NCBI GenBank assembly: GCA_937900965.1
Contig: CALCGJ010000089.1
Coordinates: 1 to 48,812 of the forward strand
Reading direction: 5' to 3'
DNA: 48,812 nt
Source of the DNA: an uncultured Bacteroidota bacterium
GTDB taxonomy: Bacteria > Bacteroidota > Bacteroidia > Bacteroidales > FEN-979
The position numbers and the translations under genes were made by a program. This document shows positions 1,742 to 33,802 of the stretch, in pieces; position 1 is the first letter of the stretch; every line of letters starts with the position of its first letter. The notes beneath the pieces are model-generated. The model searched no databases, was not told where the DNA came from, and saw only the letters and a list, made by a program, of their open reading frames with translations.

Positions 1742-1905
1742 AAAGGTATGCTTGTGAAAATATTTTTCACTAAGCACGACCTCCTTCCGGAATTGTCGCC
1801 TTCCAGGTTCATTCAGATTTTTCCTCCGGAATAATCATGACCTGAATGCTTGTTTAAAATTTTCACTTCCCATGTTTGGCCGGGTAAATTTCATTTACTC
1901 ACCGC
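1742..1905 (+). repeat. Diverged leader repeat, copy A
   Basis: Lies in the gene-free stretch between hipA and radC. It aligns over its whole length, with small gaps, to the segment at 7910-8065; both begin AAAGGTA, contain GGTTCATTCAGATTTT and then TTAAAATTTTCACT. It includes a small hairpin GTGAAAA-TAT-TTTTCAC. It ends shortly before the radC start, as copy C ends shortly before the 148-aa gene, so it may be a shared untranslated leader, regulatory RNA or recombination footprint. No function can be read from the sequence. Confidence 0.6.
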
Positions 1906-1934
1906 GGCCAACAGCTGCTTAACATTATCAAGCT

Positions 1935-2675: not shown

Positions 2676-2756
2676 ATGCAGGTCACTTGATCAACGAATG
2701 TTATTTCAAAACATAAAAATATTTGCCTCAAAGCAATAATATTCATTTATAAGTGT

Positions 2757-2764
2757 TATATTTG
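2757..2764 (+). promoter_or_regulatory. Bacteroidota -7 box upstream of the ATPase gene
   Basis: TATATTTG matches the TAnnTTTG consensus of the Bacteroidota primary sigma factor and lies 28 bp before the ATG at 2793. No convincing -33 TTG was found at the right spacing. Confidence 0.45.
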
Positions 2765-2792
2765 CAAATATTTTACATAATAGCCTTATAAA

Positions 2793-4602: not shown

Positions 4603-4649
4603 TCTTCAGTAAGACAAAGACTTATATATATTTTTGATTGATCTTATTT

Positions 4650-5693: not shown

Positions 5694-6179
5694 TCTATTA
5701 GACAAAGATTCTATTGTAAGATAGGATTTGCTTGAATCATGTTTTCTAGAAAGGTCTTACTCTTTCAATGCTTTTTTCTTTCCTACCAGGCCAAAAGCAA
5801 AAAGCTTGGTAAAAAAGAAGCCCATTCCGGGTAGCTTTTCAGAAAAGCAAGTAAAAGCGGTGAACTCCTTTAGAAAACGTCACCCTTCCGGTTTATTCAG
5901 TCTGTCGTATGATTTCTGGAAGATTCCTTTTCTGCGAGTGATTTGATTCTTTCAATCTCTCACCTTTCTTCTACCTGATTGGTTTTTCAAAGCTTCATGT
6001 CTTTGTTTTCCGGCCAATTCCTATGCTAAGTTAACAGCCCCTTCCAGGATTAGCTCCTCTCATTCAAGGATTTTCCCGGCATATCCTCACGATGTATCGG
6101 TATTCCAGTTCCTCCTTGAGTGTCCCTCCAGGGTCTTGTTCTCACTTGCATATAAATTAACCTTAAAAAACTCAAAGCC
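5694..6179. other. Gene-free stretch with a 23-bp repeat core
   Basis: No convincing gene is seen; the only sizeable open frame (5728-5946) has no family features. At 5878-5900 lies a 23-bp core that matches 21 of 23 positions with 7962-7984 inside leader repeat C, and 18 of 23 with 1794-1816 in copy A. Sequence outside the core does not align clearly. As in the other two places, an island-type gene follows downstream. Confidence 0.5.
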
Positions 6180-6476
6180 ATGAAAAAATTTGTAAAAAAC
6201 TACATCGGAAAAGGAAAGAAAGTAGATGGGCTTGACATCATAAAGCTCAACCTGAAAATCACAGACCTATTAAAGTTCGCTCATAAATACAACGACGAAG
6301 ATTACATCTCCCTGGAAGTCGCAAAATTGCAGACCCCCGACAACTTCGGCCATGATTACACGGTTTACGTCAACCGCCTGGAAGAAGAACAGGTCAGCGA
6401 ACCTGCTCCGGCTCCGAAGAAGCAAACCAAAAAATCCAAAACTGCAAAGCAGGAAACCTCCGAAGTGCCCTTCTAA
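6180..6476 (+). CDS. Small conserved-type island protein, 98 aa
   Basis: 98-residue soluble protein with a folded-looking core (residues 1-70, mixed charged and hydrophobic) and a Lys/Pro/Glu-rich tail (APAPKKQTKKSK) ending in EVPF. An acidic tail finishing in hydrophobic residues recalls single-stranded DNA-binding proteins, but no OB-fold can be read and this is speculation. It is followed by a strong terminator. Similar small proteins occur on Bacteroidota mobile islands to my knowledge, but I cannot name the family. Start ATG at 6180 follows an A-rich leader typical of Bacteroidota. Confidence 0.7.
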   Translation: MKKFVKNYIGKGKKVDGLDIIKLNLKITDLLKFAHKYNDEDYISLEVAKLQTPDNFGHDYTVYVNRLEEEQVSEPAPAPKKQTKKSKTAKQETSEVPF

Positions 6477-6496
6477 AAGGGTACATCTCCCTTAGA

Positions 6497-6525
6497 AAGG
6501 GCTGGCCAACAGGTCAGCCTTTTTT
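6497..6525 (+). terminator. Rho-independent terminator after the 98-aa gene
   Basis: Stem GGCTGGCC (6500-6507), loop AACA, stem GGTCAGCC (6512-6519, one G-T pair), followed by a run of six T. Confidence 0.85.
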
Positions 6526-6593
6526 ATGTTTATCCCTAAGTCTGCATTTTTAGGATATCAAGAGGAATCCTCAGGTATTAAAGAGAGTTAAAA

Positions 6594-7340
6594 TCATTTA
6601 TTATCCAAACTTTCAACTCTTCCGGGATTTTCCTTCTTTATCTCCAGCATTCTCCTTAAAGCAGCATTAGCATAGTTAAATTTGAACGTCCAGTCTTTAC
6701 AATATTTTCTTGTTTCTGGCTTGATGTAGCGTTCGTATGTATAGGTATATCTGAAATAGGCCTGGGTTTTCCCGTCATACAGCTCAATGTATTCAGAAAG
6801 GTCAAACTTTTTATATTCATCCAACAATTCCTTGATTTCTTTTCTTGCCAGTTCTTCGGTTTCCGATGAATAGGGTTTGTCGGTAATGTTTTGGAGTCCT
6901 TCAGGTATTTTATAATGTTTCTTTGTCTTAGTTCCTTTCGGGAGTTTGATGCTTTTGATCAGTTCGTCAAATTTTTCTTTCTCAAAGACAAGTGTCGAGT
7001 ACTTGTCAAGGTTTATTTTCCTTTCTTTCAGTTCCTTGTTTAAAGCGATCAAATCTTTCCTGTTAAAGTAAAGTTCCCGACCCCATTTGAAATAGTTTGT
7101 AAATCCTAGCTTTTCAATCAGGAACTTACCCGGGCGATAATGTGCTGTCCGGATAATTTTATCGATCTTATCGTCTGGCACCCATTCACCTCTTTCAATT
7201 GACAGTTTCTGAAAATCCTTTGCTGCTTTTAAAATCGCATCCTTCGAAAATCTTTCCGTTGCCGGAAGATCGAAGGTCCCGATTAACTTTGACAGAAGCC
7301 TCCTGATCTGCTTGATTTCGTCATAAATTTTCTCTTCCAT
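6594..7340 (-). CDS. Unknown charged protein, 248 aa
   Basis: 248-residue, Lys/Glu-rich, soluble protein with no recognised domain. The N-terminal 25 residues (EEKIYDEIKQIRRLLSKLIG) look like an amphipathic coiled coil, similar in character to the start of the neighbouring HTH protein (ESIDKRLEAIEHKLEGLIQR). The middle and C-terminus are rich in aromatic residues (YFRYTYTYERY). It lies 38 bp downstream of the 110-aa HTH gene on the same strand, so the two are likely co-transcribed. It may be a DNA-binding or structural partner encoded by a mobile element; this is inference from context only. Confidence 0.65.
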   Translation of the reverse strand: MEEKIYDEIKQIRRLLSKLIGTFDLPATERFSKDAILKAAKDFQKLSIERGEWVPDDKIDKIIRTAHYRPGKFLIEKLGFTNYFKWGRELYFNRKDLIALNKELKERKINLDKYSTLVFEKEKFDELIKSIKLPKGTKTKKHYKIPEGLQNITDKPYSSETEELARKEIKELLDEYKKFDLSEYIELYDGKTQAYFRYTYTYERYIKPETRKYCKDWTFKFNYANAALRRMLEIKKENPGRVESLDNK

Positions 7341-7378
7341 GTGACGTTGATGGTTAATCCTGTTGAAAATAATGAGTG

Positions 7379-7711
7379 TTACAACCTGAACCGTTTTTTA
7401 TTGTCCGTATCACCTTCAAGATGTTCGTCTAAATATTCTCCACCAGTCTTATGTCTGGTCTTCTCAATGAATTCGTCAACCTCCTGCTTCTTGAACAAGA
7501 TCTTGCCGCCTATTTTGTAATAGGGTAGTTTACTGTATCTAAGCTTCGTTACGGCCGCGGGAGAAATCCCGAGGTGCTGTGCAAGCTGTTTTGATGTAAT
7601 CCATGCAGTCGCTGATAGGACCGGCGGCTTGTCAATTCTTTGAATCAAACCTTCAAGCTTATGCTCAATCGCTTCCAGTCTTTTGTCTATTGATTCGAAT
7701 GGGTTATCCAT
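7379..7711 (-). CDS. Excisionase-type helix-turn-helix protein
   Basis: 110 residues. An N-terminal coiled coil (IDKRLEAIEHKLEGLIQRI) is followed by a MerR/excisionase-like HTH_17 domain: ITSKQLAQHLGISPAAVTKLR and then YYKIGGKILFKKQEVDEFI. This layout is frequent in Bacteroidota integrative elements, where such proteins regulate excision or transfer genes. It is upstream of, and probably in an operon with, the 248-aa gene. No integrase is in the window, so a role in excision is not shown. Confidence 0.8.
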   Translation of the reverse strand: MDNPFESIDKRLEAIEHKLEGLIQRIDKPPVLSATAWITSKQLAQHLGISPAAVTKLRYSKLPYYKIGGKILFKKQEVDEFIEKTRHKTGGEYLDEHLEGDTDNKKRFRL

Positions 7712-7909
7712 ATTGATTTTATTAAGTTTCGACTAAAAAATGAAAAATGTTGGATTCCTCTGTACCACAACAGAATCCCTTACAATATTAAAAAGATTGT
7801 GTATGATGATGACTTCTTCAAATCAAAATTGTCTCTTTAAATAATAATCTCCGGGGAACTTTTGTGAAAAGTACCAAAACCCAACCCACTATTACTCAAA
7901 ATTTGCTGC

Positions 7910-8065
7910 AAAGGTAAACGCATGAAAATGTTTCTCGCTAAGAGTGACCACCTCCAGGTACCGTCACCCTTCGGGTTCATTCAGATTTTGAAGAAAAAAT
8001 CAGACCTGAACTCTTGCTTAAAATTTTCACTCCGTTTGTTCCCGGTGGCATAAATTTTTTCTTAA
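7910..8065 (+). repeat. Diverged leader repeat, copy C
   Basis: Part of the 406-bp gene-free stretch 7712-8117 between the divergent HTH gene and the 148-aa gene. It aligns to 1742-1905: shared blocks include AAAGGTA, TGAAAAT, GGTTCATTCAGATTTT, GACCTGAA and TAAAATTTTCACT. It ends about 50 bp before the start codon at 8118. The rest of the stretch (7712-7909) is AT-rich with nothing recognised apart from room for the divergent promoters. Confidence 0.6.
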
Positions 8066-8117
8066 ACCCAGGCGAGCCAGATGCCTAAAAAAGTCTGCAG
8101 GGCAGCAGCGCAATACA

Positions 8118-8564
8118 ATGTCAAAGATTACCGCACCAGTCCAGAAGCCGTCCAATGGTGGATCATCCAAGGAAGAAGCCGCTGTTTTAGTTGCAGCCAC
8201 AACGATTCTTGGACCCGAGAAAAGCAAAACCGAAGTGATAAAGCCGGTTTTGAAGGCCGAACCTGAAAAACCCGTTGTGCCTGCTCCAGAGCCGGTCAAG
8301 GAAATGACCCTGATGGAAAAGATCCTCAAGGTCGAAAACCTTCAGCTTGTTATCGAAAAAAGGGCTAAGCTGGTCCAGACACGCAGCGAACTGGAAAGGT
8401 TCCAGACAGCATCCAATGATTTCAACTGCTCCATGCGGCTGAATGATTCAGACGGAAACGTCTTCACCACCAGCTTCACCCCTGGAATCAAGAAAGTCAT
8501 TGACTTTCTCAGGACATCCTTCGATGCAAGCATCAACGATGTCGAGAACAAGATCACGTTCTGA
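8118..8564 (+). CDS. Small conserved-type island protein, 148 aa
   Basis: 148 residues. The N-terminal 55 residues are low-complexity and Pro/Ala/Lys/Glu-rich (PVVPAPEPVKE), probably disordered. The rest appears helical: a segment ELERFQTASNDFNCSMRLND and a C-terminal helix IKKVIDFLRTSFDASINDVE. No enzyme motif is seen and I do not recognise the family by name. It is preceded by leader repeat C and followed by a perfect terminator, so it is a monocistronic unit. The start ATG at 8118 is the first that gives the full frame. Confidence 0.7.
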   Translation: MSKITAPVQKPSNGGSSKEEAAVLVAATTILGPEKSKTEVIKPVLKAEPEKPVVPAPEPVKEMTLMEKILKVENLQLVIEKRAKLVQTRSELERFQTASNDFNCSMRLNDSDGNVFTTSFTPGIKKVIDFLRTSFDASINDVENKITF

Positions 8565-8588
8565 CCTTCGGTTCACCATCGGATTACG

Positions 8589-8619
8589 GCGTTCAGGCTT
8601 AGGCCTGAACGCTTTTTTT
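8589..8619 (+). terminator. Rho-independent terminator after the 148-aa gene
   Basis: Perfect 10-bp stem GCGTTCAGGC / GCCTGAACGC with loop TTAG, followed by seven T (8613-8619). Confidence 0.92.
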
Positions 8620-8713
8620 ATGGTCGTAAAAGCTGTGGATTTGTTCTGTTTCTGTTATTCTCAGGAAGATTTGCTTGGCAGATTTCTTGTCATGTAATCA
8701 TCTATTCTTAAAA

Positions 8714-9133
8714 TCAAATCTTTATAAATCTATAAATGATATGACGGTCCGTTCCTGTTATCATCAGGAAGTAGATTCCTGGAGAGAAGTCACGAATAGA
8801 AATCCTTACAAGGGAAAGCCCATTCTGATTCTCAGGATAACGGATCAGTATTTTTCCATAGATGTCACAAACTGAAAACGCCGGAATGGCTTCCGTGCTT
8901 ATTCCAGTGGTATAAGATGTGATGGAATCGCCGGTGACGGAAGTGACCAGGCAGTAACCCGGAGTTATGTAATCTCCAATATTAACATAAAAACGATCGT
9001 TTATCGTATCGTAACCGATTGATGTAATAAAGGTAAACAGAAAAGAACCCGGATCTGGTATGATTACAGAATCGGCAATCACAAAGTTAGTCAGGTCGAT
9101 GGATCCAATCCCCTCGTTCCTGGTTAGATTCAA
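8714..9133 (-). pseudogene. Truncated secreted-protein gene with sorting tail
   Basis: The 139 encoded residues match the C-terminal part (about residue 254 onward) of the intact 437-aa protein at 29841-31154. Shared segments include the GIGS-DL, DTINDRFYVNIG and ITSY-TGISTEA blocks and the sorting-tail motifs DIYGKIL and IYFL. Two losses are visible: the whole N-terminal region with the signal peptide, and an internal block of about 45 residues between STEA and the DIYGK motif, including the YPNPA start of the sorting domain. Without a signal peptide it cannot be a working secreted protein. The apparent Met start at 9133 is incidental. It lies on the opposite strand to the intact copy. Confidence 0.8.
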
Positions 9134-9268: not shown

Positions 9269-11431
9269 TTAATATTTTTCAAGAAACTTACATACTTTTT
9301 CAACCAAATCCCCCGGGATGATCGGTTTGGCCAGGTAATCATCGCAACCGGCTTTGTAACATTTTTGCTCCTCTCCCGACATGGTATAGGCAGTTTGGGC
9401 TATCACCGGCAAATCCGGGCGGATTTTCTTGATCATGGGGGTTGCTTCAAAACCTGTAAGCTTTGGTAACTGGATGTCCATCAACACCAGGTCAATATCG
9501 GACATTTCCTTGCAGTACTTCACGGCGGTTTGCCCGTCTTTGGCCCAGATAAGCTTCGTTCTTAGCCTTTTTAACGCTGCCTGCAGGTAGCTGTAACTTG
9601 AGAAGTCGTCTTCTACGATGAGTATTTTTTTATCAGAGAGATCGGGAAGCGCTGTAAGCCTTGGTTTGGGAATGGGAGATTTATAGGTCTCTTCAACCGG
9701 GGAGTAAGGTAGTGTGAAATAAAATGCACTTCCCTTTCCAACCTGGGATTCAACCCACATCTTCCCTCCCAGTAAAATGGTCAGGTTTTTGGAAATGGCT
9801 AGTCCGAGCCCAGTCCCGCCCTGGTTTTGTTCCATTACCGACTCCACACGGGTAAATTGATCAAATATCCGGTCATGATCTTTTAGGGGAATACCTATAC
9901 CGGAGTCCCTCACAAAGAATTGAAGGGTCTGTTTATCTGCAAAGGCATATCCAAATTCAATACTTCCCTTCTCGGTAAACTTGATGGCGTTGCTCAGTAG
10001 GTTCGACATGATTTGCCTGAACCGCATCGGATCCGTAACAATCAACTGATTGAGATCATCAAACCCTCTGATGAAATTTAAGGTGACCTGTTTTTTCGCT
10101 TTCAGCGCCAGGTACCCCGAATAAAAATCATACAATTCAATGCAGATCTGGTTGATCGGGCAGTTCGCTTTGTGAATGCTCAACACCCCTGCCTCAATCT
10201 TCGAGACATCAATGATATCGTTCACCAGGTTGAGCAGGCTCTCCCCGTTTTTCGTGATCTGGTCCAGGAATTTCCGTCGCTCCTCCTCTGAGAGTTCTCT
10301 CTCCTTGAGCAGTTCCGAGAAACCGATGATGGCGTTCATAGGAGTGCGGATGTCATGCGACATATTCGCTAAAAAGGAGGACTTCATCAAATCTGATTTT
10401 CTCGCTTTTTCGCGTCCTTGGATCAATTCGTTTTCATAGTCTTTTCGTTCTGTGATCTCATGTGCCGAAAAAACAATGGATCCTGAGGTAGTTATTTCGC
10501 CGGGGATGAAATTGGCGGTACACTCCATCCAAATATAGTGACCATCAGTATGTAAAAATTTAAACTCAGATGTGTATTCAATCTCTTCGGTCATTTGTTC
10601 GCGAAAGAGTTTGATGATCTTGTCCCGGTCTTCTGAATGAATAAATTCAAAAAACGATCGTCCGATCAAGCGCTCCTGGTCGTATCCGAAATAGAGAGTG
10701 TGGGCTGAGTTTGCCCATAAATAGACACCTTCCATGTCGGTCTTAAAGACCAGCGCCCGTATATTTTCTGTGATCTCCCGGATGACCCGTTCCCGTTCCC
10801 GGATGCTCTGTTCTGCCTTCTTGCGCTCCCCGACCTCTTTCTCCAGTTCGGCTGTTCGTGATGCGACTTTGCTCTCGAGTGTTTTATTCATCTCACTCAA
10901 TTCACGTTGCGCGGCTAACAGTGACTTGTTCTTCAAAATCGCCGTGTCATACGTGCTCAATAAAAACCGGAGTATCTTTTCGTGATTGGCTGTCAGGGTA
11001 TGGGTCTCGCCATCAATGATCACAGCAATTTCCTTTGTCTCCTGGGCTGGAGCACCCGATTCGGTCTTTTGGATGATCGTGTCAAGGACTTTTTTCAGGG
11101 AGGTTTCATCAATAGGTTTGGAGATGAAGTTATCGGCGCCGGCAACCAATCCTTTGATCACATCGGAAGGGTCTGACAACGAAGAGAGCAGGATCACCGG
11201 TATCTGCTGAAACCTGCTGTCGGATTTCATCCTTTTGCACAGGGTATAGCCGTCCATCTCCGGCATGAGGATATCTGAAACAACCAGGGCCGGCGGGTTG
11301 TTTGCGATGAGTTTCAAAGCGGCTGCCCCGTCAGGAGCAATGGTTGCCTCAAATCCCAGTTCTTCCAGCATGAACTTCAGATTCTCTGCCTGGGTGGGAC
11401 TGTCCTCTGCGATGATAATCTTATTTTTCAT
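9269..11431 (-). CDS. Hybrid histidine kinase, REC-PAS-HisKA-HATPase-REC
   Basis: 720 residues, cytoplasmic (no membrane segment). Order: receiver 1 (residues 1-120, Asp53); linker with the LLSTYDTAILKNKSLL motif (157-172) and a coiled coil; PAS (about 215-330); HisKA with SHDIRTPMN (His359); HATPase_c with N box SNLLSNAIKF, G1 DSGIGIP and G2 GGTGLGL; receiver 2 (603-720, Asp652). The kinase would autophosphorylate His359 and pass phosphate to Asp652; the N-terminal receiver is presumably an input from another kinase. Last gene of the chemosensory operon, 13 bp after the 578-aa kinase gene. No output domain is present. Confidence 0.92.
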   Translation of the reverse strand: MKNKIIIAEDSPTQAENLKFMLEELGFEATIAPDGAAALKLIANNPPALVVSDILMPEMDGYTLCKRMKSDSRFQQIPVILLSSLSDPSDVIKGLVAGADNFISKPIDETSLKKVLDTIIQKTESGAPAQETKEIAVIIDGETHTLTANHEKILRFLLSTYDTAILKNKSLLAAQRELSEMNKTLESKVASRTAELEKEVGERKKAEQSIRERERVIREITENIRALVFKTDMEGVYLWANSAHTLYFGYDQERLIGRSFFEFIHSEDRDKIIKLFREQMTEEIEYTSEFKFLHTDGHYIWMECTANFIPGEITTSGSIVFSAHEITERKDYENELIQGREKARKSDLMKSSFLANMSHDIRTPMNAIIGFSELLKERELSEEERRKFLDQITKNGESLLNLVNDIIDVSKIEAGVLSIHKANCPINQICIELYDFYSGYLALKAKKQVTLNFIRGFDDLNQLIVTDPMRFRQIMSNLLSNAIKFTEKGSIEFGYAFADKQTLQFFVRDSGIGIPLKDHDRIFDQFTRVESVMEQNQGGTGLGLAISKNLTILLGGKMWVESQVGKGSAFYFTLPYSPVEETYKSPIPKPRLTALPDLSDKKILIVEDDFSSYSYLQAALKRLRTKLIWAKDGQTAVKYCKEMSDIDLVLMDIQLPKLTGFEATPMIKKIRPDLPVIAQTAYTMSGEEQKCYKAGCDDYLAKPIIPGDLVEKVCKFLEKY

Positions 11432-11444
11432 GAGGGCCTCCCTG

Positions 11445-13181
11445 CTAATTCGTGTTCGATTTCTCGAATATCCGTGTAATCTTCTCCATGAGCTCGGCAG
11501 CTTTGATTGGTTTGGTCACGAGATCTGAAAACCCTGCTTCCAGCACCTGCTCTTCATCATGACTTAGAGCATATGCTGTTTGTGCAATAATCGGGATATC
11601 TCCCCTTATCCTCAGGATCTGTTCAGTAGCTGTATAACCATCCATGACAGGCATCTGGATATCCATCAGGATCAGGTCAATGGTTACCCCATTCGAGCAC
11701 ATATCCACAGCCTCTTTCCCATTTTTTGCCCGGAGCATCTCAGCCCTGGTCTTTTTCAAAATATGCTCAATTAACTGGAAATTCGAATCCACATCTTCGG
11801 CTACCAGGATACGCTTGCCAGCCCAATTCAATGTGTCGGGCCGCTGTGTCTCAACTGTTACCAGAGGCTCGACAACCTTTGGTAGTACAAGCGGTAACGC
11901 GACTGTAAAAACGGAGCCTTCTCCTACGGAGGACTCCACGTGGATCTCCCCTCCCAGAAATTCCACCAGCTTTTTGGTAATGGTCAGTCCAACGCCTGTT
12001 CCGCTGTATTTCCTGGTGTGAAACTCCTCCAGTTTGATGAACTTATCAAAGATCAGGTGAATCTTGTCTGCTGGAATTCCGGTTCCCGAATCACATACGA
12101 AAAACTCAATAAAATCTTGTTTCTCCAATGAATATCCAAATTCAATAAACCCGGATTCAGTAAATTTCAAGGCGTTCTTCAATAAATTATTCAACACCTG
12201 CTTCATTCGTACCTGGTCGATCAGGATGGTAAACTGATCCTCCTTTTTCGCAGCAGATAACCGGAAAAGGAGGTTGTCCAATTGATGCCGCTCATTTTCC
12301 ACAAAATCTGACCGGATAGATTCCATAAATGCGTTGATTCTGCACTCCTGGAGGTTGGGTACGATATGTTCTGACTCAATGACAGCCAGGTCCACGATGC
12401 TGTCGATGATCCCCAGGAGATTCTTACATCCGGTGGAGATATGACCGGCAAATTCGGCCCGTTCCTCTGCCGTTATTTCCGGATCGACAATAAAGGTAGA
12501 GAAGCCGAGGATAGCATTCATGGGGGTTCGGATCTCATGGGAGAGGTTGTTCAGAAACGCGGATTTAAGGTTGCCGGCTTGCTCAGCCACTTCCTTGGCC
12601 TTTTTCAGATCAACTTCAATCTTTTTCTTCTCTTCAATTTCCTCACGCAAACTTTTGGTCTGCTCTGCCACCTTCTGTTTGAGATCTTGATTCAATTCCT
12701 GGAGCTGTTGCTGCGTGGCTTTGAGTTCCCTGTTTTTTTGCAACGCGGTTTGGTAGGTCGAGATCAGAAAATTCTCCAGCCTGGGATTGAATGAGGCTAC
12801 TGAAGGTTCTTGCGGATGCAGTAACTTCTCCACCCAATCCAATAATTCTCCCTCGCTAAAGGGTTTGATCAGGTAACTTTCGGCTCCCACCTGCAACCCC
12901 CTGATCAAATCCTTGGGAGAAGAAAGGGTTGTGAGCAGCAATACGGGGATGTCCTGCAGCGATGCATCTCCTTTGATTGCCGCGCATAATTCATATCCAT
13001 CCATTTCGGGCATCAGGATATCGCTGATGATCAGGGCGGGCAGGTGTTTTTTCGCCAGGTTGAACGCCTCAACTCCGTTTTCTCCATGGATCACGGTATA
13101 CCCCTGATTTTGCAGGATGAAAGTTAGCATTTCGGCCTGAGTGGAACTATCTTCTGCAATGATGATCAACTCTTTTTTCAT
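11445..13181 (-). CDS. Hybrid histidine kinase, REC-HisKA-HATPase-REC
   Basis: 578 residues, soluble. Receiver 1 (1-120, Asp54) is followed by a linker with FLISTYQTALQKNREL (138-153) and a long coiled coil (155-200) rather than a PAS domain. HisKA is LSHEIRTPMN (His215); HATPase_c has NNLLKNALKF, DSGTGIP and GTGVGL; receiver 2 spans about 456-575 with Asp507. The lack of any sensory domain suggests that signal enters through the N-terminal receiver, perhaps from CheA. It sits between two kinases of the same design with 13- and 18-bp spacers, so operon membership is clear. Confidence 0.92.
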   Translation of the reverse strand: MKKELIIIAEDSSTQAEMLTFILQNQGYTVIHGENGVEAFNLAKKHLPALIISDILMPEMDGYELCAAIKGDASLQDIPVLLLTTLSSPKDLIRGLQVGAESYLIKPFSEGELLDWVEKLLHPQEPSVASFNPRLENFLISTYQTALQKNRELKATQQQLQELNQDLKQKVAEQTKSLREEIEEKKKIEVDLKKAKEVAEQAGNLKSAFLNNLSHEIRTPMNAILGFSTFIVDPEITAEERAEFAGHISTGCKNLLGIIDSIVDLAVIESEHIVPNLQECRINAFMESIRSDFVENERHQLDNLLFRLSAAKKEDQFTILIDQVRMKQVLNNLLKNALKFTESGFIEFGYSLEKQDFIEFFVCDSGTGIPADKIHLIFDKFIKLEEFHTRKYSGTGVGLTITKKLVEFLGGEIHVESSVGEGSVFTVALPLVLPKVVEPLVTVETQRPDTLNWAGKRILVAEDVDSNFQLIEHILKKTRAEMLRAKNGKEAVDMCSNGVTIDLILMDIQMPVMDGYTATEQILRIRGDIPIIAQTAYALSHDEEQVLEAGFSDLVTKPIKAAELMEKITRIFEKSNTN

Positions 13182-13199
13182 GCGTGTGAAAATTATAAA

Positions 13200-14909
13200 T
13201 CAATTTGCTGGATTTAAAAACCGGTCTAACTCTTTCAGGAGATCTTTCGGCTGGACCGGATTGCTGATATAGGCATCGCAGCCGGCGGCAAAACATTTCT
13301 CCTCCTCCCCATCCATCGCATAGGCCGTTTGAGCGATAATGGGAAGTTCTTTTCTCATTTTCTTTATCTCCCGGGTAGCCTCATAACCATTCAGGAAAGG
13401 CATCTGGATATCCATCAGCACCAGGTCTATATCCTGGTTTTGCTTGCAGAACTGGATGGCATCCAGCCCGTCAGTTGCCCTGAGCAATTTCACCTTCGTT
13501 CGAGAGAGTGCACCTTCCAGAAAGAGATAGTTGGAATGGGTGTCGTCGACTACCAGGATAACATGGTTCTCCCAGTTGTATGTTTTTTCTGTTTTGCCTG
13601 CCTTGCCATTGGCGCCAGCAGTTTCATCCACCAGCCAAGGGAGTGCGATGCAGATCTTTGTTCCCTTATTTACTACACTGTTCACTTTTATCTCACCCTG
13701 GTGGGCATCAACGATCCGTTTCACACTGAACAGCCCAAGGCCGGTTGAAGGTTCTCCCTGAGTTGCCTTTACGCTGATTTTTGCGAATGGCTTAAACAAC
13801 TCTTGCCGCTCTTCCGCTGGAATCCCCTGTCCCTGATCCTCTACGCAAATAATTACTTCACTTTTCTTTTCTGAGAGTGTTACCTCGACATTGGTTTGGG
13901 GATGGGAAAATTTGATCGCATTGGTGAGCAGGTTATTCATCACCTGGTCCAGTTTGTTGGGGTCGGCCTGAAAGGAAACAGCCTCATCAGGATGGTGAAA
14001 GTGTATCCCGATTTTTTTCTTGTCGGCCAGGTATTGATTGGTTTCGATGTTTCCTGCAATCAGTTCCGTAAGGTTGATCCTCTCTTTCTTTGGGATCAGT
14101 TTACCCGTTTCCAGTTGCGTAACGTCCAGTAAATCGGTGATGAGCTTCAGCATCTTTTTTTCTGAATTCTCAATGATATTCATGAATTTAAGATTGTCAT
14201 CCTCCGGCGGCAGATCCATCGACTCCTTCATCAGCATGATAAACGAAAGGATGTTGGAAAGTGGGTTCTTCAAATCATGCGCTGCCATTCCCAGGAAGTA
14301 GTTCTTTTCTTCATTGAGCTTCTCCAGTTCTCTCTTTTTGCGTTCAAGGTCGTCATTCACGCGCGACAGCTCCAGGTGTGCTCTCACCAGGTCGTTTGAT
14401 TTGCTTACCGCATTCTCATAGGTGGAGAGAAGCAGGTCGATGATCTGTCGCCGTTCTGATGTGATAAAGTGTTTCTCCCCGTTAAAGAAGATGTCCATCC
14501 CAAAACTCAGTTTGGTCTGTTCGCGCATGCCCCAGTTGATGAGGATACTCTCGATCTGTGTGAGGAGATACTCTTCTGTAAACGGCTTGGGAATGAAATT
14601 ATCGGCTCCCACCTCCAGCCCCTTTATAATGTCCCTGGGATCTGCCAGGGCCGTAAGCAGGATTACCGGGATATTGATATATTTCTCGTTTTTTCGGATC
14701 TCCCTGCAAAGGGTGAATCCATCCATCAAAGGCATAATGACATCGGTGAGGATCATACTGGGAAGTTCCTCTTCAATCATTTTCAGGGCTTCTTCCCCAT
14801 TGCATGCCACGCGGGTGTTGTACATCTCCATCTTCAGGATAGATTGAAGGTAGGCAGCCTGTGTTTTGCTGTCTTCCACGATCAGGATGGTATAATTTTC
14901 GTGTTTCAT
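13200..14909 (-). CDS. Hybrid histidine kinase, REC-HisKA-HATPase-REC
   Basis: 569 residues, soluble. Receiver 1 (1-122, Asp56); linker FFNGEKHFIT followed by LLSTYENAVSKSNDL (159-173); coiled coil; HisKA of the HDLKNP type (His211), different from the HEIRTP type of the sister kinases; HATPase_c with NNLLTNAIKF, EDQGQGIP and STGLGL; receiver 2 (about 448-567, Asp500). No PAS or membrane segment. Separated from cheB by a short heptamer-repeat spacer. The N-terminal receiver implies control by an upstream phosphodonor. Confidence 0.92.
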   Translation of the reverse strand: MKHENYTILIVEDSKTQAAYLQSILKMEMYNTRVACNGEEALKMIEEELPSMILTDVIMPLMDGFTLCREIRKNEKYINIPVILLTALADPRDIIKGLEVGADNFIPKPFTEEYLLTQIESILINWGMREQTKLSFGMDIFFNGEKHFITSERRQIIDLLLSTYENAVSKSNDLVRAHLELSRVNDDLERKKRELEKLNEEKNYFLGMAAHDLKNPLSNILSFIMLMKESMDLPPEDDNLKFMNIIENSEKKMLKLITDLLDVTQLETGKLIPKKERINLTELIAGNIETNQYLADKKKIGIHFHHPDEAVSFQADPNKLDQVMNNLLTNAIKFSHPQTNVEVTLSEKKSEVIICVEDQGQGIPAEERQELFKPFAKISVKATQGEPSTGLGLFSVKRIVDAHQGEIKVNSVVNKGTKICIALPWLVDETAGANGKAGKTEKTYNWENHVILVVDDTHSNYLFLEGALSRTKVKLLRATDGLDAIQFCKQNQDIDLVLMDIQMPFLNGYEATREIKKMRKELPIIAQTAYAMDGEEEKCFAAGCDAYISNPVQPKDLLKELDRFLNPAN

Positions 14910-14911
14910 AA

Positions 14912-14947
14912 TTAGGCTGTTAGGCTGTAGGCTTTTAGGCTGTAGGT
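14912..14947. repeat. Heptamer-type tandem repeat TAGGCTG/TAGGCTT
   Basis: Spacer between the 569-aa kinase gene and cheB, made of 7- to 8-bp units TAGGCTG, TTAGGCTG, TAGGCTT, TTAGGCTG, TAGG. The same units recur at 16028, 16446 (inverted) and 21241 (inverted). Confidence 0.75.
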
Positions 14948-14953
14948 ATATTG

Positions 14954-16009
14954 TTACTTGTTATTTATTTCCATTTCGTAGAGTAGTTGGCTGATTTCGG
15001 TGGCGCTTAAAATATAATTTGCTGCATCGAGTTGGGCGGCTACGCCGGGCATTCCATAGATCAGGGAGCTTTCTTTGTCCTGGGCGATGGTAAACGCCCC
15101 TGCATCCCGCAGCAGCTTCAACTCTTTTGCCCCGTCGCTGCCCATCCCTGTTAGAATGATCCCCATGGCAGATTTTCCATACATTTGGGCCACGCTTCTG
15201 AACAGATAAGCTACAGAGGGGCACAACCCATTTTTCCTGTCGCATCTTTCCAGCGCAATTTTCCCTTGTTTGGATATTCCCATCTGGTGATTATCGGGGG
15301 CAAAGTAGATGTGACCGGCGAGAAGGAGATCCCCATCAGCTGCAACATGGATAGGAATGGCTGTGGTATTTCCAAGCCATTTAACCAGTCCGGAAAGAAA
15401 CCCTTCGGTGATATGCTGGACCACCAGGATGGGGAGAGGAAATTTATTTGAAATTTTTGAAAACACCTGCTGCAACACCTGCGGGCCACCGGAGGAGACC
15501 CCGATGGCAATTACATTCAACCGGTCATGATCTTCCCAGGGAACCTCCCGCCTGACTGGGGGTGGTTTCTCCCGGGGCTTCACCCCGGGCTTGGGTTTCC
15601 GGGAAACTACCTTCACCTCGGCCATCAGCTTGATCATAGTAACCAGTTGGTCTGCCCTCTTCTGTTCGTCTGGATGACCCGTGCCAACCGGTTTTTCAAT
15701 CACTCCAAGCGCTCCGGCTGCCAGCGCTTCCATGGAGGTTGACACCTCGTTTGCATTCCTGCTGGCTGTAACAATCAAAATCGGGATCGGTGTTGTTGAC
15801 ATGATGATACGGGTAGCTTCCAGTCCATCCATAATGGGCATATTGATATCCATGCTGATGACATCGGGCTTGTGCCATTTAAGGAACTCTATTGCTTGTT
15901 TCCCATTGCTGACATTCCCGATCACCTGGATCTGGGGATCTTTGCTGAGGATGTAGTAGAGGTACTCGCTGACTACGCGGGAGTCTTCGACGATTAGAAC
16001 GTTAATCAT
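14954..16009 (-). CDS. cheB: CheB protein-glutamate methylesterase
   Basis: 351 residues. N-terminal receiver (1-125, Asp54), a Pro/Lys-rich linker (about 138-155), then the CheB methylesterase domain with the catalytic triad Ser172 in GVSSGGP, His199 in VVQHITEGF and Asp292 in GMGSDGAKEL. It removes methyl groups from (and deamidates) chemoreceptor glutamates, opposing CheR, once phosphorylated by CheA. It lies with cheR, cheA, cheW and an MCP gene in the same strand and order, supporting a complete adaptation system. Confidence 0.95.
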   Translation of the reverse strand: MINVLIVEDSRVVSEYLYYILSKDPQIQVIGNVSNGKQAIEFLKWHKPDVISMDINMPIMDGLEATRIIMSTTPIPILIVTASRNANEVSTSMEALAAGALGVIEKPVGTGHPDEQKRADQLVTMIKLMAEVKVVSRKPKPGVKPREKPPPVRREVPWEDHDRLNVIAIGVSSGGPQVLQQVFSKISNKFPLPILVVQHITEGFLSGLVKWLGNTTAIPIHVAADGDLLLAGHIYFAPDNHQMGISKQGKIALERCDRKNGLCPSVAYLFRSVAQMYGKSAMGIILTGMGSDGAKELKLLRDAGAFTIAQDKESSLIYGMPGVAAQLDAANYILSATEISQLLYEMEINNK

Positions 16010-16027
16010 TTCTACGTATGTTTCGTT

Positions 16028-16062
16028 ATAAGGCTATAGGCTTTTAGGCTGTAGGCTGTAGC
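16028..16062. repeat. Heptamer-type repeat, left flank of the four-helix gene
   Basis: Units AGGCTAT, AGGCTTTT, AGGCTGT, AGGCTGT immediately downstream (minus-strand sense) of the four-helix-bundle gene. It is in inverted orientation to the array at 16446-16507 on the other side of that gene. Confidence 0.7.
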
Positions 16063-16074
16063 TTTCATGTTTTT

Positions 16075-16431
16075 TTATCGTTTTCGCATGCTTCGGACGA
16101 GGGCTCCAAGGACTTTTTCGGCTTCCTGAAGCTTAACTTCACACTCGTCCATAAATGATTCTTTAATGTAATCCAGTCGGAATGCTAACCCAAACTGATA
16201 GTGCAACTCCCTCAAGGAGGCAAAACTTATTTCAAGGAACCTTAGATATTCACTTTGACTTTCACGTGCGCATCCTTCGACAATATTTGAAGGAACCAAA
16301 ATAGCGGCTCTTCTCATTTGAGAGGTCAACCCAAACATCTCTGCTTTTGGAAATTCTGCAGTTATCCGATACGTCATCAGTACTATTTCATCAGCAAGTT
16401 CAAACGCTCTAAGTTTATTATGATCCCTCAT
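16075..16431 (-). CDS. Four-helix-bundle protein, S23/IVS family
   Basis: 118 residues with the features of the four helix bundle (S23 / 23S rRNA intervening-sequence) family: an aromatic start ending KLRAFELADEIV, the middle FGLTSQMRRAAILVPSNIVEG with the conserved R-RA--S---NI-EG pattern, and E--R-L---S--EL-Y--L. The family is related to the Avd accessory protein of diversity-generating retroelements and is widely scattered in genomes; its role is unknown. It breaks up the chemotaxis operon between cheB and cheA, and both flanks carry the same repeat units in inverted orientation, so it looks like an inserted cassette. No rRNA or reverse transcriptase gene is nearby. Confidence 0.88.
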   Translation of the reverse strand: MRDHNKLRAFELADEIVLMTYRITAEFPKAEMFGLTSQMRRAAILVPSNIVEGCARESQSEYLRFLEISFASLRELHYQFGLAFRLDYIKESFMDECEVKLQEAEKVLGALVRSMRKR

Positions 16432-16445
16432 TTTACTTTTGCTTT

Positions 16446-16507
16446 AATTTCTATTTCCCTACAGTCTAAAAGCCTTCAGCCTTTCTTCCGACAGCCTACA
16501 GCCTAAA
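16446..16507. repeat. Heptamer-type repeat, right flank of the four-helix gene
   Basis: Units ATTTCTATTTCC, then CTACAGTCTAAAAGCC, TTCAGCC and CAGCCTACAGCCTA, the reverse complement of the TAGGCTG units at 16028 and 14912. The cheA stop codon (16503-16505) lies inside the array. Confidence 0.7.
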
Positions 16508-18827
16508 GTAAGCGTTCCACTACCTCCAGCAGGTTACTCTGATCAAAGCTGCTCTTGACGATGTAAGCGTTGGCTCCGACCTCCATGCCACGTTCACGGT
16601 CTTCTTTTTTCGAAAGGGATGTGACCAGCACGATGGGCAATTCGGCCAATGCCTTATCAGAGCGGATCTTGGCTGTCATATCAAACCCGTTCATCCTCGG
16701 CATATCCACGTCTGATACGATCAGGTCGAACGGTTCCTCTTTCAATTTTGTATATCCTTCCACCCCGTCGATGGCTGTGGATACCTTGTAACCGGCTGTT
16801 TCCAATATGTTCTTCAGAAGCATCCGGGAGGTGATGGAGTCTTCCACCACCAGGATCGTATTCATTTCCTTCTCTTTTTCGGTACGCTTCTCCCTGACTC
16901 TTTGAGAGGTCTCCTTCACGGCAGATTTCAGCAGGTCCGACACATTCAGGATGGGTATTACCTTTCCTGAGCCTAGTACCGTGGCCCCGGCCACATTACG
17001 GACCCGTTTCAATTGATTGTTGAATTTCTTCACCAGAACCACCTCTTCATCCAGGATCTCGTCCACGGCAAAACCGATCGGTTCATCCAGGGAGCAGAAA
17101 ACCAGCGCCAGGATGTGTGTACCTTCACTCTCTTTGAATGGCATCTCCAGAAGGTCAGAAAGGTGTACCAAGGAAATCACTTCTCCGTTGTACGGAATCG
17201 TTTCTTTGTTCTCTACGGTTTTCACCGCCGACTTATCCAGCCGCAGAACCCGGTCGATCTTGGAGGTTGGCACGATGTATTCCCGCTCTCCCAGCAACAC
17301 ACGTACGCCCCGGAATGTGACCAATGCCAGCGGGATCTGGATCCTGAATTCGGTTCCTTTTCCCGCGGTAGTCTTAACCGAGACCGAGCCGCCCAACTGC
17401 TCAATTTTCTCCTGTACGATCGCCAGACCCAGCCCTCTTCCCGACAGGTCGGTGATCATATCACTGGTCGAAATGCCTGATTTGAATATATAATTCAGGA
17501 GTGTCTGCTCCTTGATCCCGCTCGCCTCCGATGCAGGAATTTTTTCCTGCTTCAGGTACCTCTTCATCAGCTTGTCCATGTCGATCCCGGCTCCATCGTC
17601 GGCGATGGTGATCTCGACCATATTGTTTTCCATGCGATCGATGATCAGTTGAATCAATCCTTTCTCCGGTTTGTTCTTCTGTTTTCTGATCTGAGGCTTC
17701 TCGATGCCATGATCCACGCAATTCCGGAGCAAGTGCATCAACGGATTCCGGATCTCCTCCAGGATTCTCCGATCAACTTCAATCTCTTCCCCCCGGATTG
17801 CGACCGATACCTCCTTGCCCTTGTCTTTTGACATATCACGCGCTGCTTTGGGAAATACATCGAGGATGGTGGAGACCGGCACGGAGATCATCTTTTTTAC
17901 CTCATCAAGAAGAGATTCTATTTTTGCACCGGAGTTATAAGCCTCCATCATGGAAAATTTCCGCAATTTCTCCAGGTCGGCCTCCACGGTTTTCACGAGG
18001 GAAGAGGTCCATTCAACATAATCTTCCATTTTTAATGAGACTTCGGAAGCTTCATAGCTCCATGAATTCAGTTTCTTTACCGTTGCACGCAATCCTTCAC
18101 CCACATGGTCGAACGTTTGCTTCAGAGCCAGCATCTCCTCCGACTGGAATAACAGGTTGTCCAGTTTTTCCACAGAGATCCGGATCGTTTCATCGTGTTT
18201 GACCGCAGGAGACACCTGTATGGTCTTTCGCGAAGCTTCCGCTTTTTGTGGCTGATCTGTTGGTTGATAGCGGTGAGCTTGCTGTGGTTGCTGGTGGTGA
18301 TCTTGCTGTAGTTGCTGTGGTAGTTTGTCATCCGGGTGTTTCCCATCGTTGATAGTGAACGGTTGAGCTTCCGGGGGCGATGCCGGTTCAGGTAATTCCA
18401 CCTCATTGATCTCTCCTGCTTCCACCTTCAGTAAGTTGATGGAGAGGGTGGTAACACGGCCTTTTAGGGTTTCGGGAATCTCCTGGTCGGCTACCTCCAG
18501 GATGTTGCTCAGGGTGTTCACCGTGAGGTGAAAGAGGTCGAATAACCGGGAATCGAGGGCAATCGTCTTGTTTTTCAGGGCAGAAAAAACACTCTCCATC
18601 GCCTGGCAAATGGTTTCGATCTCCGTGATGTTTACCGCGCGGGCCGCTCCTTTCAAACTATGCGCCTCCCTGAATATCGCTTCAATGAGCTGCGCTTGCT
18701 TTGCTTCCGGGGGCTTCTTCTCCAACTCAATGAGATTGGATGTAATATTCGCAATGCCCTCTGTTGCCTCAATTTTAAAGGTGGCCCGTATCTTCTTTAA
18801 AAATTCTTCCCGGTTATTCATTTCCAA
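16503..18827 (-). CDS. cheA: CheA histidine kinase fused to a receiver
   Basis: 774 residues. P1/Hpt domain (1-120) with phosphorylated His56 in REAHSLKGAARA; a Gln/His/Pro-rich linker (about 160-200, LPQQLQQDHHQQPQQ) where P2 would be; P3 dimerisation helices; P4 HATPase with EIRNPLMHLLRNCVDHG, DDGAGID and GRGLGL; P5 CheW-like domain; and a C-terminal receiver (655-774, Asp706). CheA-receiver fusions are known in gliding and alternative chemosensory systems. The receiver may act as a phosphate sink or relay. No obvious CheY/CheB-binding P2 domain is seen. The likely N-terminal extension MEMNNREEF makes the two nearby Met codons equally possible. Confidence 0.95.
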   Translation of the reverse strand: MEMNNREEFLKKIRATFKIEATEGIANITSNLIELEKKPPEAKQAQLIEAIFREAHSLKGAARAVNITEIETICQAMESVFSALKNKTIALDSRLFDLFHLTVNTLSNILEVADQEIPETLKGRVTTLSINLLKVEAGEINEVELPEPASPPEAQPFTINDGKHPDDKLPQQLQQDHHQQPQQAHRYQPTDQPQKAEASRKTIQVSPAVKHDETIRISVEKLDNLLFQSEEMLALKQTFDHVGEGLRATVKKLNSWSYEASEVSLKMEDYVEWTSSLVKTVEADLEKLRKFSMMEAYNSGAKIESLLDEVKKMISVPVSTILDVFPKAARDMSKDKGKEVSVAIRGEEIEVDRRILEEIRNPLMHLLRNCVDHGIEKPQIRKQKNKPEKGLIQLIIDRMENNMVEITIADDGAGIDMDKLMKRYLKQEKIPASEASGIKEQTLLNYIFKSGISTSDMITDLSGRGLGLAIVQEKIEQLGGSVSVKTTAGKGTEFRIQIPLALVTFRGVRVLLGEREYIVPTSKIDRVLRLDKSAVKTVENKETIPYNGEVISLVHLSDLLEMPFKESEGTHILALVFCSLDEPIGFAVDEILDEEVVLVKKFNNQLKRVRNVAGATVLGSGKVIPILNVSDLLKSAVKETSQRVREKRTEKEKEMNTILVVEDSITSRMLLKNILETAGYKVSTAIDGVEGYTKLKEEPFDLIVSDVDMPRMNGFDMTAKIRSDKALAELPIVLVTSLSKKEDRERGMEVGANAYIVKSSFDQSNLLEVVERLL

Positions 18828-29840: not shown

Positions 29841-31154
29841 ATGAAAAAATTATACACTGTTGCTGCCATTGGGCTGATGCTCTCATTGTCTTTCTATACC
29901 TCAGCTCAGGGGTACTATGTAAAACAAATCATTACCGGAAATAGCGGCAAATTTGAGTTTACCCCACCATTTGAGGATTATGTAATACTTCAGAATTACG
30001 ATCCTGTAACCCAATCGGGCTTACTCTTTGGAACCATTTTCACCCAGTCAATCCAGGATATTCTGATTGCAGAGCCGTTCGCTTATATCTCTGCCCAGGA
30101 TTCTATTGTCAAGTACAACCTCAACTCCCTGGAACGGGTGTCGGCCGTAGCCGATTCAGGAATAAACAAGCTGAGCATATGCCATGGCCGGCTGGTCATC
30201 TCAAAACAATATCCGGTGACAAAGTGCTTTGCCACGGTCAGGGACACATCCGACCTGTCACTTGTCAGCAATATTGAAGGTATTACAGGAGATGCTGCCG
30301 GTATGGTCACGACAAATGACACACTCTATGTTGCCGTTAACGAAGGTTGGATGGGAAGTGATGGCAAACTGGCGGTCATTGATCCAAATACCTGGACACT
30401 GGTACGGCAGATCGAACTCGGTAATGATGCAGTGGGCATTTACAATCTCTACCTTTACAACGGTCAACTCATTTCGGTCAATAAAACGCCATATGGAGTA
30501 ACGGATCAGGGGAGCCTGACAGTTTATGACCCGATAACCGGAAATGTCCAGAATTATCTTTATGGCGTAACTGTTGGAAATGGATGTGGGTTGAATGATT
30601 CGCTGCTCTATTTCCTGATCAATAATGGAATCGGCTCCGTGGACCTGAATACGATGCTCATCGCAGATTCATCCATCATCAACGATCCGGGTTCTTCCTT
30701 ATTCACCTACATTACATCCGCTGCATTTGACACTATCAACGACCGGTTCTATGTCAATATCGGCAATTACATTACTCCCGGGATCTGTCTGGTAGCTTCG
30801 GCAACAGGAGATTCCATTACCTCTTATGCAACCGGCATCTCAACGGAAGCTGTTGCCATTGACTACCGCGAGATGATGACAGGTTTTGAGGGACAAATCC
30901 CATCCATTTCGAATACTGTTACACTATACCCAAATCCGGCAACCGATCATCTTAATATTCAGTTCCGGGAATTTCATGAAGCTAAAAGCCTCCTGATTAC
31001 CGACCTATACGGAAAGATCCTGGTTTATCGTACTTGTGATGTTCAGGATAATACAAGTGTACGGCTCGACATTGGGATGTTACCATCTGGCATGTATTTC
31101 CTGGTTGTGGAGAATACTAAAGAAAAAACTGTCGGTCGATTTATCAAACTGTAA
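29841..31154 (+). CDS. Secreted YncE-like propeller protein with type IX sorting tail
   Basis: 437 residues. Signal peptide at the N-terminus (KKLYTVAAIGLMLSLSFYTSAQ). The body has repeating blade-like segments (GMVTTNDTLYVAVNEGW; GKLAVIDPNTWTLVRQI; GSLTVYDPITGNVQNYLYG) like YncE/DUF5074-type beta-propellers. The last 75 residues form a Por secretion tail: TLYPNPATDHLNI, then DLYGKIL and LPSGMYFLVVE, ending VGRFIKL. It is exported by Sec and then by the type IX system to the cell surface or medium. Binding function unknown. A degraded relative is at 8714-9133. Confidence 0.9.
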   Translation: MKKLYTVAAIGLMLSLSFYTSAQGYYVKQIITGNSGKFEFTPPFEDYVILQNYDPVTQSGLLFGTIFTQSIQDILIAEPFAYISAQDSIVKYNLNSLERVSAVADSGINKLSICHGRLVISKQYPVTKCFATVRDTSDLSLVSNIEGITGDAAGMVTTNDTLYVAVNEGWMGSDGKLAVIDPNTWTLVRQIELGNDAVGIYNLYLYNGQLISVNKTPYGVTDQGSLTVYDPITGNVQNYLYGVTVGNGCGLNDSLLYFLINNGIGSVDLNTMLIADSSIINDPGSSLFTYITSAAFDTINDRFYVNIGNYITPGICLVASATGDSITSYATGISTEAVAIDYREMMTGFEGQIPSISNTVTLYPNPATDHLNIQFREFHEAKSLLITDLYGKILVYRTCDVQDNTSVRLDIGMLPSGMYFLVVENTKEKTVGRFIKL

Positions 31155-32898: not shown

Positions 32899-33256
32899 TA
32901 ATTGTATTTACCTGGGATTTATTTTATTATGCAGATTTCGCACTTTTGAATTCGGGAAATAGAGTAGATCATTATTTTACCATTACCCCTGCATGTGAGA
33001 AAGAAGATATATCATAATGCTGTAAATAAAGTGCCAAAGGTAAGGTTAACCAGGTTGAATTTACCATATGCTCTATAGCTTTGTTTGTACCCTATTTGTT
33101 CCTCCAAACAACAAATAACTGATATACAGAAAGAGTTGATTACTTTCTGTATTTGAAGATGGGGATGTACATGCGAGTGGAATGGTAATCTTAGAAACCA
33201 TTTTACTTCAATGACTTTTTCTGATATTATTTTGTACATATTTTGTGCATATTTAA

Positions 33257-33292
33257 CAAGGGTTTTCAGATAGATATATCTGAAAATCCTTG
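33257..33292 (-). terminator. Hairpin downstream of the tRNA-Pro fragment
   Basis: 16-bp stem with one mismatch (CAAGGGTTTTCAGATA / TATCTGAAAATCCTTG) and a GATA loop. It sits just past the CCA end of the tRNA fragment on the minus strand, the usual place of a tRNA terminator. Confidence 0.65.
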
Positions 33293-33299
33293 TCGTTGT

Positions 33300-33344
33300 T
33301 GGTCGGGATAGCAGGATTCGAACCTGCGACGCCTTGCTCCCAAA
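33300..33344 (-). other. 3' half of tRNA-Pro(TGG): attachment-site-like fragment
   Basis: On the minus strand this reads from the anticodon loop TTTGGGA (anticodon TGG) through the anticodon 3' stem GCAAGG, a full T arm (GCAGG-TTCGAATC-CTGC), acceptor 3' strand TATCCCG, discriminator A and CCA. The 5' half (acceptor CGGGATA, D arm, anticodon 5' stem) is absent; unrelated sequence replaces it exactly at the anticodon loop. This is the form left when an integrase recombines within the 3' half of a tRNA gene. Confidence 0.8.
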
Positions 33345-33552
33345 ACAACCTCAAAAACATGTTGCCGAATGAAAGCCACTCCTATCCTTCCGGTTCTTAT
33401 CGTATGAATTTCTATCGAAAGTTTTAATGATTTCCTGTCTTAGTGAAAACGAAAGTATTGATGATTATTTATGTTTTTATTTGTACCCTATTTGTACCTC
33501 TAAACCGTAACATATTGAAAGATAGTATGAGTTACTTTCTGCATCGGAAAGT

Positions 33553-33579
33553 AAAAAAAAAGTCCCGCCAAGGCGGGAC
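33553..33579 (-). terminator. Rho-independent terminator of the cold-shock gene
   Basis: GTCCCGCC-AA-GGCGGGAC (33562-33579) followed, on the minus strand, by nine T (33553-33561). Confidence 0.88.
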
Positions 33580-33610
33580 CCAAAATGTTAAATGTTTATA
33601 GTATTATCGA

Positions 33611-33802
33611 CTATGCAAGTCTGACATTTACCGCATTTAATCCTTTTCTTCCTTCTTCCAAATCAAATGTAACTTCGTCATTCTCTCTGACATTGTCTTT
33701 AAGTCCATTTGCATGTACAAAATACTCTTTTGGTGAATTTGAGTCTTTGATAAAACCGAATCCTTTTGATTCATTGAAGAATTTAACTGTTCCTGTGTTC
33801 AT
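33611..33802 (-). CDS. cspA: Cold-shock domain protein
   Basis: 63-residue single cold-shock domain with RNP1 KGFGFI (13-18) and RNP2 EYFVHA (26-31); starts GTVKFFNESKGFGFI. An RNA chaperone that melts secondary structure. It has its own promoter (TATCTTTG) and a strong terminator. The 190-bp leader space to the divergent M28 gene is short, so a long cold-sensing 5' UTR like that of E. coli cspA is not evident. Confidence 0.95.
   Translation of the reverse strand: MNTGTVKFFNESKGFGFIKDSNSPKEYFVHANGLKDNVRENDEVTFDLEEGRKGLNAVNVRLA

What the first reader, a model, noticed from the sequence alone, without database searches (positions are those of the whole stretch)
33300..33344. tRNA-Pro 3' half as a remnant integration site
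The 45-bp fragment is a precise tRNA-Pro(TGG) 3' half starting at the anticodon loop and including CCA, with a terminator hairpin in the normal place. The 5' half is missing. Integrases that use tRNA 3' halves leave such copies at the far end of an element. No integrase lies in the window, so the element is either out of view or lost.
Basis: partly seen in the sequence, partly recalled or inferred. Interest (0 to 1): 0.58.

Follow-up and report, generated by a model that had tools for sequence, protein, structure and literature searches.

The report
Stranded tRNA half in integration scar
A bacterial chromosome keeps a broken copy of a tRNA gene inside a half-kilobase patch where the ends of different mobile DNA elements lie side by side; it is a clear but essentially ordinary trace of past insertions, and it led to a family of small elements that insert at another gene, mnmE.

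Summary
Window 33300-33344 (minus strand) is the 3' half of tRNA-Pro(TGG), from the anticodon loop to an encoded CCA. No tRNA is predicted in the window; the intact gene is on another contig (C201).

The plain 'far end of an element' reading needs correcting. Identity to the intact locus runs 118 bp, past CCA through a hairpin and a paired 10-base repeat. Comparison with relatives indicates that this block is an element-borne end in place of a native terminator. The half sits in a 471-bp patch (33084-33554) with two ends of another element type. One is a typical right boundary (attR) of an element inserted at the 3' end of mnmE. The same draft genome holds mnmE, attL and integrase on contig C113; two same-genus genomes have the empty mnmE-csp site; the integrase family lies just after mnmE in 72 of 80 named loci.

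Best reading: a composite att scar, with a tRNA-Pro element end stranded beside an mnmE-element attR, away from tRNA-Pro. The scar nature is well supported. How the pieces fused is undecided, and a chimeric contig cannot be excluded.

Known kind of thing; modest interest.

The parts
33300..33344 (-). 3' half of tRNA-Pro(TGG), anticodon loop to CCA; core of a tRNA-Pro attachment site
33256..33293 (-). hairpin after CCA, element-type terminator with altered T-tract
   Evidence: element-borne by comparison
33231..33251 (-). paired repeat TATGCACAAA-A-TATGTACAAA, arm-like end of the tRNA-Pro element type
   Evidence: same place after tRNA-Pro (C201) and tRNA-Val (C41)
33532..33554 (+). mnmE 3'-end core TTACTTTC-TGCATCG-GAAAGTAA (attR); bases 33537-33554 are the mnmE end
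   Evidence: (1 match, none in shuffles)
33480..33500 (+). arm repeat of the mnmE element type (TTTGTACCCTATTTGTACCTC)
   Evidence: none in shuffles; arm-core spacing
33084..33104 (+). second copy of the mnmE-type arm
33140..33162 (+). degenerate core of the second mnmE-type end; left half kept, right half not mnmE
   Evidence: alignment
33560..33581 (-). terminator between the mnmE end and csp
   Evidence: conserved position in G004
33611..33802 (-). csp (cold-shock protein), native neighbour of mnmE in G004 and G003

Best explanation
The tRNA-Pro half is the core of an old attachment site, still joined to the outer end of a tRNA-Pro-targeting tyrosine-recombinase element (hairpin plus paired arm-like repeats). 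It is stranded inside a composite scar whose outermost layer, next to csp, is the attR of a different element inserted at the 3' end of mnmE. Shown by comparison: the core, both arm types and the mnmE attR; the empty mnmE-csp site in two same-genus genomes; mnmE, attL and integrase on another contig of this genome; complete examples of both element types elsewhere. Inferred: the pieces came together by accretion of elements with loss of their bodies, or by recombination between att sites, so that the half lies away from tRNA-Pro. It is not expected to work as a tRNA.
For: Half. The block beyond CCA is element-borne: it follows both tRNA-Pro and tRNA-Val in this genome; in G006 it follows the intact tRNA-Pro, while the far 3' half 40 kb away has another terminator; far halves in G008 and G036 have a 'GAAAAGTCCTGGAC' terminator that also follows intact tRNA-Pro in G013 and G017. 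mnmE attR: arm 50 nt before the core, as in 10 of 16 complete elements; empty site, attL and attR side by side. Colinearity with G004 begins at 33537 and with G003 at 33579. The integrase family follows mnmE in 72 of 80 loci, median distance 816 bp.
Against: I found the same junction nowhere else: the 75 bases before the half have no match of substance in the loci loaded, and two exact-pattern scans of viral contigs found nothing. The body of a tRNA-Pro element and its integrase were not found in this genome. The 24 kb to the left (about 9.3-33 kb) looks like a chemotaxis and kinase region, partly 77% identical to G004, not like an element body, so a rearrangement or a chimeric contig is possible. 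attL (C113) and this attR are on different contigs of a 301-contig draft, so that they bound one insertion is inferred. Arm-core spacing was 51-72 nt in 4 of the 16 complete elements and the arm pattern was not found in 2.
Confidence: 0.7

Rival explanations
1. One reading: a plain far-end attR of an element inserted at tRNA-Pro, followed by native DNA.
For: 3' half with CCA and an intact tRNA-Pro elsewhere; such halves exist in relatives.
Against: The element-type end, not a native-type terminator, follows the half; no integrase-proximal end or integrase before it; an mnmE-type att end lies 135 bp away.
Confidence: 0.07
2. Junction of two neighbouring tRNA-Pro elements (proximal end, core, outer end), later cut by a deletion that joined it to an mnmE element end. 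This is one way to the best explanation.
For: G009:C14 shows exactly such a proximal-core-outer junction; tandem copies occur in the mnmE family (L151).
Against: The DNA before the half does not match the proximal end shared by G006, G008, G009 and G036.
Confidence: 0.3
3. Secondary-site insertion: a tRNA-Pro element inserted inside the end of an mnmE element, and all but its outer end was lost. Another way to the best explanation.
For: The mnmE-type end is similar to G024:C119 up to 33380 (74%) and the half begins 35 bp further on; similarity to G024 ends before it.
Against: No second boundary of such an insertion is visible; the target half-site cannot be recognised from one example.
Confidence: 0.2
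4. Assembly artefact: a chimeric contig joined at short repeated att sequences.
For: Draft of 301 contigs; the junction was not seen elsewhere; the left flank is not an element body.
Against: The mnmE core is only 23 bp and the module ends are not exact repeats of other places found in this genome, so they are weak grounds for a false join. No reads were available.
Confidence: 0.1
5. Split or trans-spliced tRNA half with a function.
For: The 3' half and T-arm are intact in sequence.
Against: An intact tRNA-Pro(TGG) gene exists; the half has four changes in 46 bases.
Confidence: 0.01

Closest known systems
Accretion of IMEs and CIMEs at one att site (PMC5704250; passages read)
   Same: Decayed elements that keep att sites are found side by side with later elements.
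   Different: Here two target specificities (mnmE and tRNA-Pro) lie within 471 bp, and the element bodies are missing.
SGI1 and relatives at the 3' end of trmE/mnmE (PMC8409611 abstract start in listings; PMC5704250 passages)
   Same: Tyrosine integrase and the same target gene end.
   Different: The 16 Bacteroidota elements delimited here are 5.7-11.2 kb, with no relaxase among the Pfam families shown. Homology of the integrases to SGI1 Int was not tested.
Dehalococcoides ssrA island arrays (PMC3146451; passages read)
   Same: Target-gene 3' fragments mark island boundaries, many in one genome.
   Different: Serine recombinase and tmRNA target; those fragments lie downstream of the target gene, within 100 kb.
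Riemerella anatipestifer 10K genomic island at tRNA-Arg (PMC6764341; passages read)
   Same: Bacteroidota island of similar size with a tyrosine integrase next to a tRNA.
   Different: Other target gene; perfect 53-bp repeat at both ends.

Membership tests
far-end attR of a tRNA-Pro-targeting element | 3' part of the tRNA without the 5' part; intact gene elsewhere | tested here: met
far-end attR of a tRNA-Pro-targeting element | native downstream DNA follows the half, identity to the intact locus ends with the core | tested here: not met
   identity over 118 bp and an element-type end
far-end attR of a tRNA-Pro-targeting element | integrase near the half, as in G006 | tested here: not met
   none in the window; G006 has one
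attR of an mnmE-targeting Bacteroidota element | arm repeat before an inverted-repeat core that ends in the mnmE 3' end | tested here: met
attR of an mnmE-targeting Bacteroidota element | empty site in relatives | tested here: met
   G004 and G003. The other three same-genus genomes do not add: no mnmE found in G001, contig end after mnmE in G002, other DNA after the G005 copy viewed
attR of an mnmE-targeting Bacteroidota element | attL and integrase beside mnmE in the same genome | tested here: met
   C113
attR of an mnmE-targeting Bacteroidota element | one continuous element from that attL to this attR | not testable with these tools
   attL and attR lie on different contigs
accretion / CIME | att sites kept while integration genes are lost | tested here: inconclusive
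   att-like modules kept and no integrase in the window, but the original order is unknown
split tRNA gene | no intact gene for this tRNA | tested here: not met
   intact gene on C201

The most novel reading that the evidence does not exclude
Elements with different target genes (mnmE and tRNA-Pro) stack or exchange their outer ends, so that an island boundary becomes a multi-target docking patch that could receive either class of element away from its normal gene.
Probability: 0.12. Interest if true: 0.5.

Novelty: new member of a known kind. Interest (0 to 1): 0.3.

Why it matters
It shows that a tRNA fragment, often used to call the far end of an island, can sit at a locus unrelated to its tRNA and mark a stranded element end instead. 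It also led to a Bacteroidota family of small mnmE-targeting elements with clean ends, useful for dating insertions and for tests of integrase arm sites.

Tried and rejected
Split tRNA: rejected, intact gene on C201. Rfam scan of the window at gathering thresholds: no match. Plain far-end reading: not kept, because of the sequence after the half. Native downstream neighbour of tRNA-Pro, sought through the gene next to G004 tRNA-Pro: no orthologue in this genome, best match 29%. Is the left 33 kb island cargo? Undecided: the chemotaxis cluster is patchy, and its CheR-TPR protein has close homologues (63-78% identity) only in G004 and G030 among 60 relatives; 14 of 61 genomes, the own one included, pass E 1e-40. 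The same junction in viral contigs: none. Phage records: 92 matched; the 20 listed match only about the tRNA half. Assigning the scar to the AAA-DUF4143 gene: dropped, more likely cargo.

Full report
Check. Reading the minus strand from 33344 to 33300 gives the tRNA-Pro(TGG) anticodon loop through to CCA. ARAGORN finds no tRNA in the window. The intact gene is on C201 of the same genome, after tRNA-Ser(GCT). Including base 33345, 42 of 46 positions agree, against at most 27 in 50 shuffles. The match to the intact locus runs on, however: 118 bp at 88%. It passes CCA, a hairpin (33256-33293) and a paired 10-base repeat, TATGCACAAAATATGTACAAA here and TTTGCACAAAATTTGCACAAA in C201. A similar block follows tRNA-Val in C41. 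Within 3 mismatches the repeat pattern occurs at four places in the genome; the fourth, on C220, was not examined. The run of T after the hairpin is altered in the window.

What the block after the half is. With the half plus block as query, 63 of 100 genomes (own and 99 relatives) had a match; in most genomes eight candidates were scored. Among the loci returned, nearly all matches outside the window are intact tRNA-Pro genes, with a few tRNA-Val and tRNA-Tyr; matches not returned as loci were not classified, apart from those fetched. tRNA-Pro 3' parts without the 5' part were found at seven places in six genomes: G006, G008, G009, G028 (two), G036 and G064; ARAGORN finds no tRNA in those fetched stretches. 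In G006 the intact gene and the half are 40 kb apart on one contig, and a 448-aa integrase gene starts 182 bp from the half (PHROGs calls it integrase). There the hairpin-arm block follows the intact gene, while a different terminator follows the half. In G008 and G036 the halves are followed by a 'GAAAAGTCCTGGAC' terminator that also follows intact tRNA-Pro in G013 and G017. The block is therefore best read as the outer end of an element. G009:C14 shows proximal end, core and outer end in a row. In the window the half is joined to an outer end but has no recognised proximal end before it.

The neighbour. In same-genus G004 and G003, csp is adjacent to mnmE. In the window the last 18 bases of mnmE (33537-33554) lie beside csp, but what stands to their left is not mnmE; colinearity with G004 starts at 33537. 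To the left are an arm repeat and, 50 nt on, the core TTACTTTC-TGCATCG-GAAAGTAA. The 561-bp query found this kind of end at 17 other places in 14 of 60 relatives, by my count of the list without G004; in most genomes 10 candidates were scored, so this is a lower bound. The genome's mnmE is on C113, followed by an attL-type sequence, a helix-turn-helix protein and a tyrosine integrase. A search of named genomes with that integrase kept the best 80 of 105 confirmed loci. The mnmE 3' end lies within 3.5 kb upstream of it in 72 of 80, at a median of 816 bp. Of the other eight, L151 and L170 show only the core, L180, L193 and L203 have under 800 bp of upstream DNA, and L198, L201 and L202 show neither. 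Sixteen loci show both ends, 5.7-11.2 kb apart. Only elements short enough for the fetched flank, and matching my core pattern, could be seen, so this range is biased. The arm lies exactly 50 nt before the core in 10 of these 16 and in the window; in four it is 51-72 nt and in two the pattern was not found, though one search shows variant arms there. A second, degenerate copy of this end lies at 33084-33162.

How it most likely arose. Three short modules stand in one orientation: an mnmE-type core with outer end, a tRNA-Pro-type core with outer end, and a degenerate mnmE-type core with outer end. No element bodies lie between them. The modules are shown by comparison; the order of events is inferred. 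Accretion of elements with decay is the general model (PMC5704250, passages). Tandem neighbours do occur in the mnmE family (L151, identical 119 bp at both boundaries). A deletion, a secondary-site insertion, or recombination between att sites could have brought the tRNA half here, and I cannot choose among them.

Results against. The 75 bp before the half have no substantial match in the loaded loci. Among the integrases of this genome that I compared with the G006 one, the nearest is on C187 at 26% identity; the C211 and C178:35116 hits were not in that comparison. The region from about 9.3 to 33 kb holds chemotaxis, kinase, glycosyltransferase and secreted-protein genes, and 10029-18024 is 77% identical to G004. 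So the window's left side is not obviously the inside of an mnmE element, and attL on C113 and attR here may not bound one insertion. The genome is a draft of 301 contigs and I had no reads.

Comparison with the known. 3' fragments of the target gene at island boundaries are established (PMC3146451, passages). Insertion at the 3' end of trmE/mnmE is known from SGI1 and Vibrio islands (PMC8409611, abstract start; PMC5704250, passages). Three searches for a Bacteroidota counterpart gave no dedicated paper (none, one review, none). One search (mnmE, integrase, attachment site) listed six papers which, by titles and abstract starts, concern dusA integrases and SGI1-type islands. This covers only the open library held. 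In ten complete elements, 54 of 83 predicted proteins were scanned and none of the 25 Pfam families shown, of 28, is a relaxase; the eight L175 proteins scanned show none either. Recalled and not from a call: that tyrosine recombinases often use the symmetry of tRNA stem-loops as core sites.

Verdict. A real, decayed, composite attachment scar; a new example of a known kind, with an unresolved joining event.

Noticed in passing
L069 (G000:C113) 1-8332; loci L129-L208: Family of small integrative elements at the 3' end of mnmE in Bacteroidota: integrase after mnmE in 72 of 80 loci; 16 with both ends seen, 5.7-11.2 kb. Usual order: HTH, integrase, unknown, HTH, helicase/primase-like, Zn-ribbon/DUF6371, cargo.
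   Followed up: partly
window 1-8640: Mobile-element genes: HipA, RadC, an AbiLi/AbiLii-like pair (2793-4602) and HTH_17. Stretches are 79-87% identical in DNA to the G006 tRNA-Pro element, L117.
   Followed up: partly
L018 (C201) 660-1955; L025; L029: AAA_14-DUF4143 ATPase (PADLOC candidate PDC-S01 for the C201 copy, the only one scanned) next to outer ends of tRNA-Pro- and mnmE-type att sites; the L025 and L029 copies were recognised by eye.
   Followed up: no
window 33256-33293; C201:455-490: Hairpin stems agree between the two copies, but the 4-base loop is reverse-complemented (TATC against GATA), as if the palindrome had flipped.
   Followed up: no
window 8889-9112 and 30627-30850: Inverted partial copy (69%) of a Por-tail secreted-protein gene on either side of the chemotaxis cluster.
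   Followed up: no
L151, 1-119 and 8049-8167: mnmE-type element with the identical 119 bp (arm and core) at both boundaries and different DNA beyond: a tandem neighbour.
   Followed up: partly
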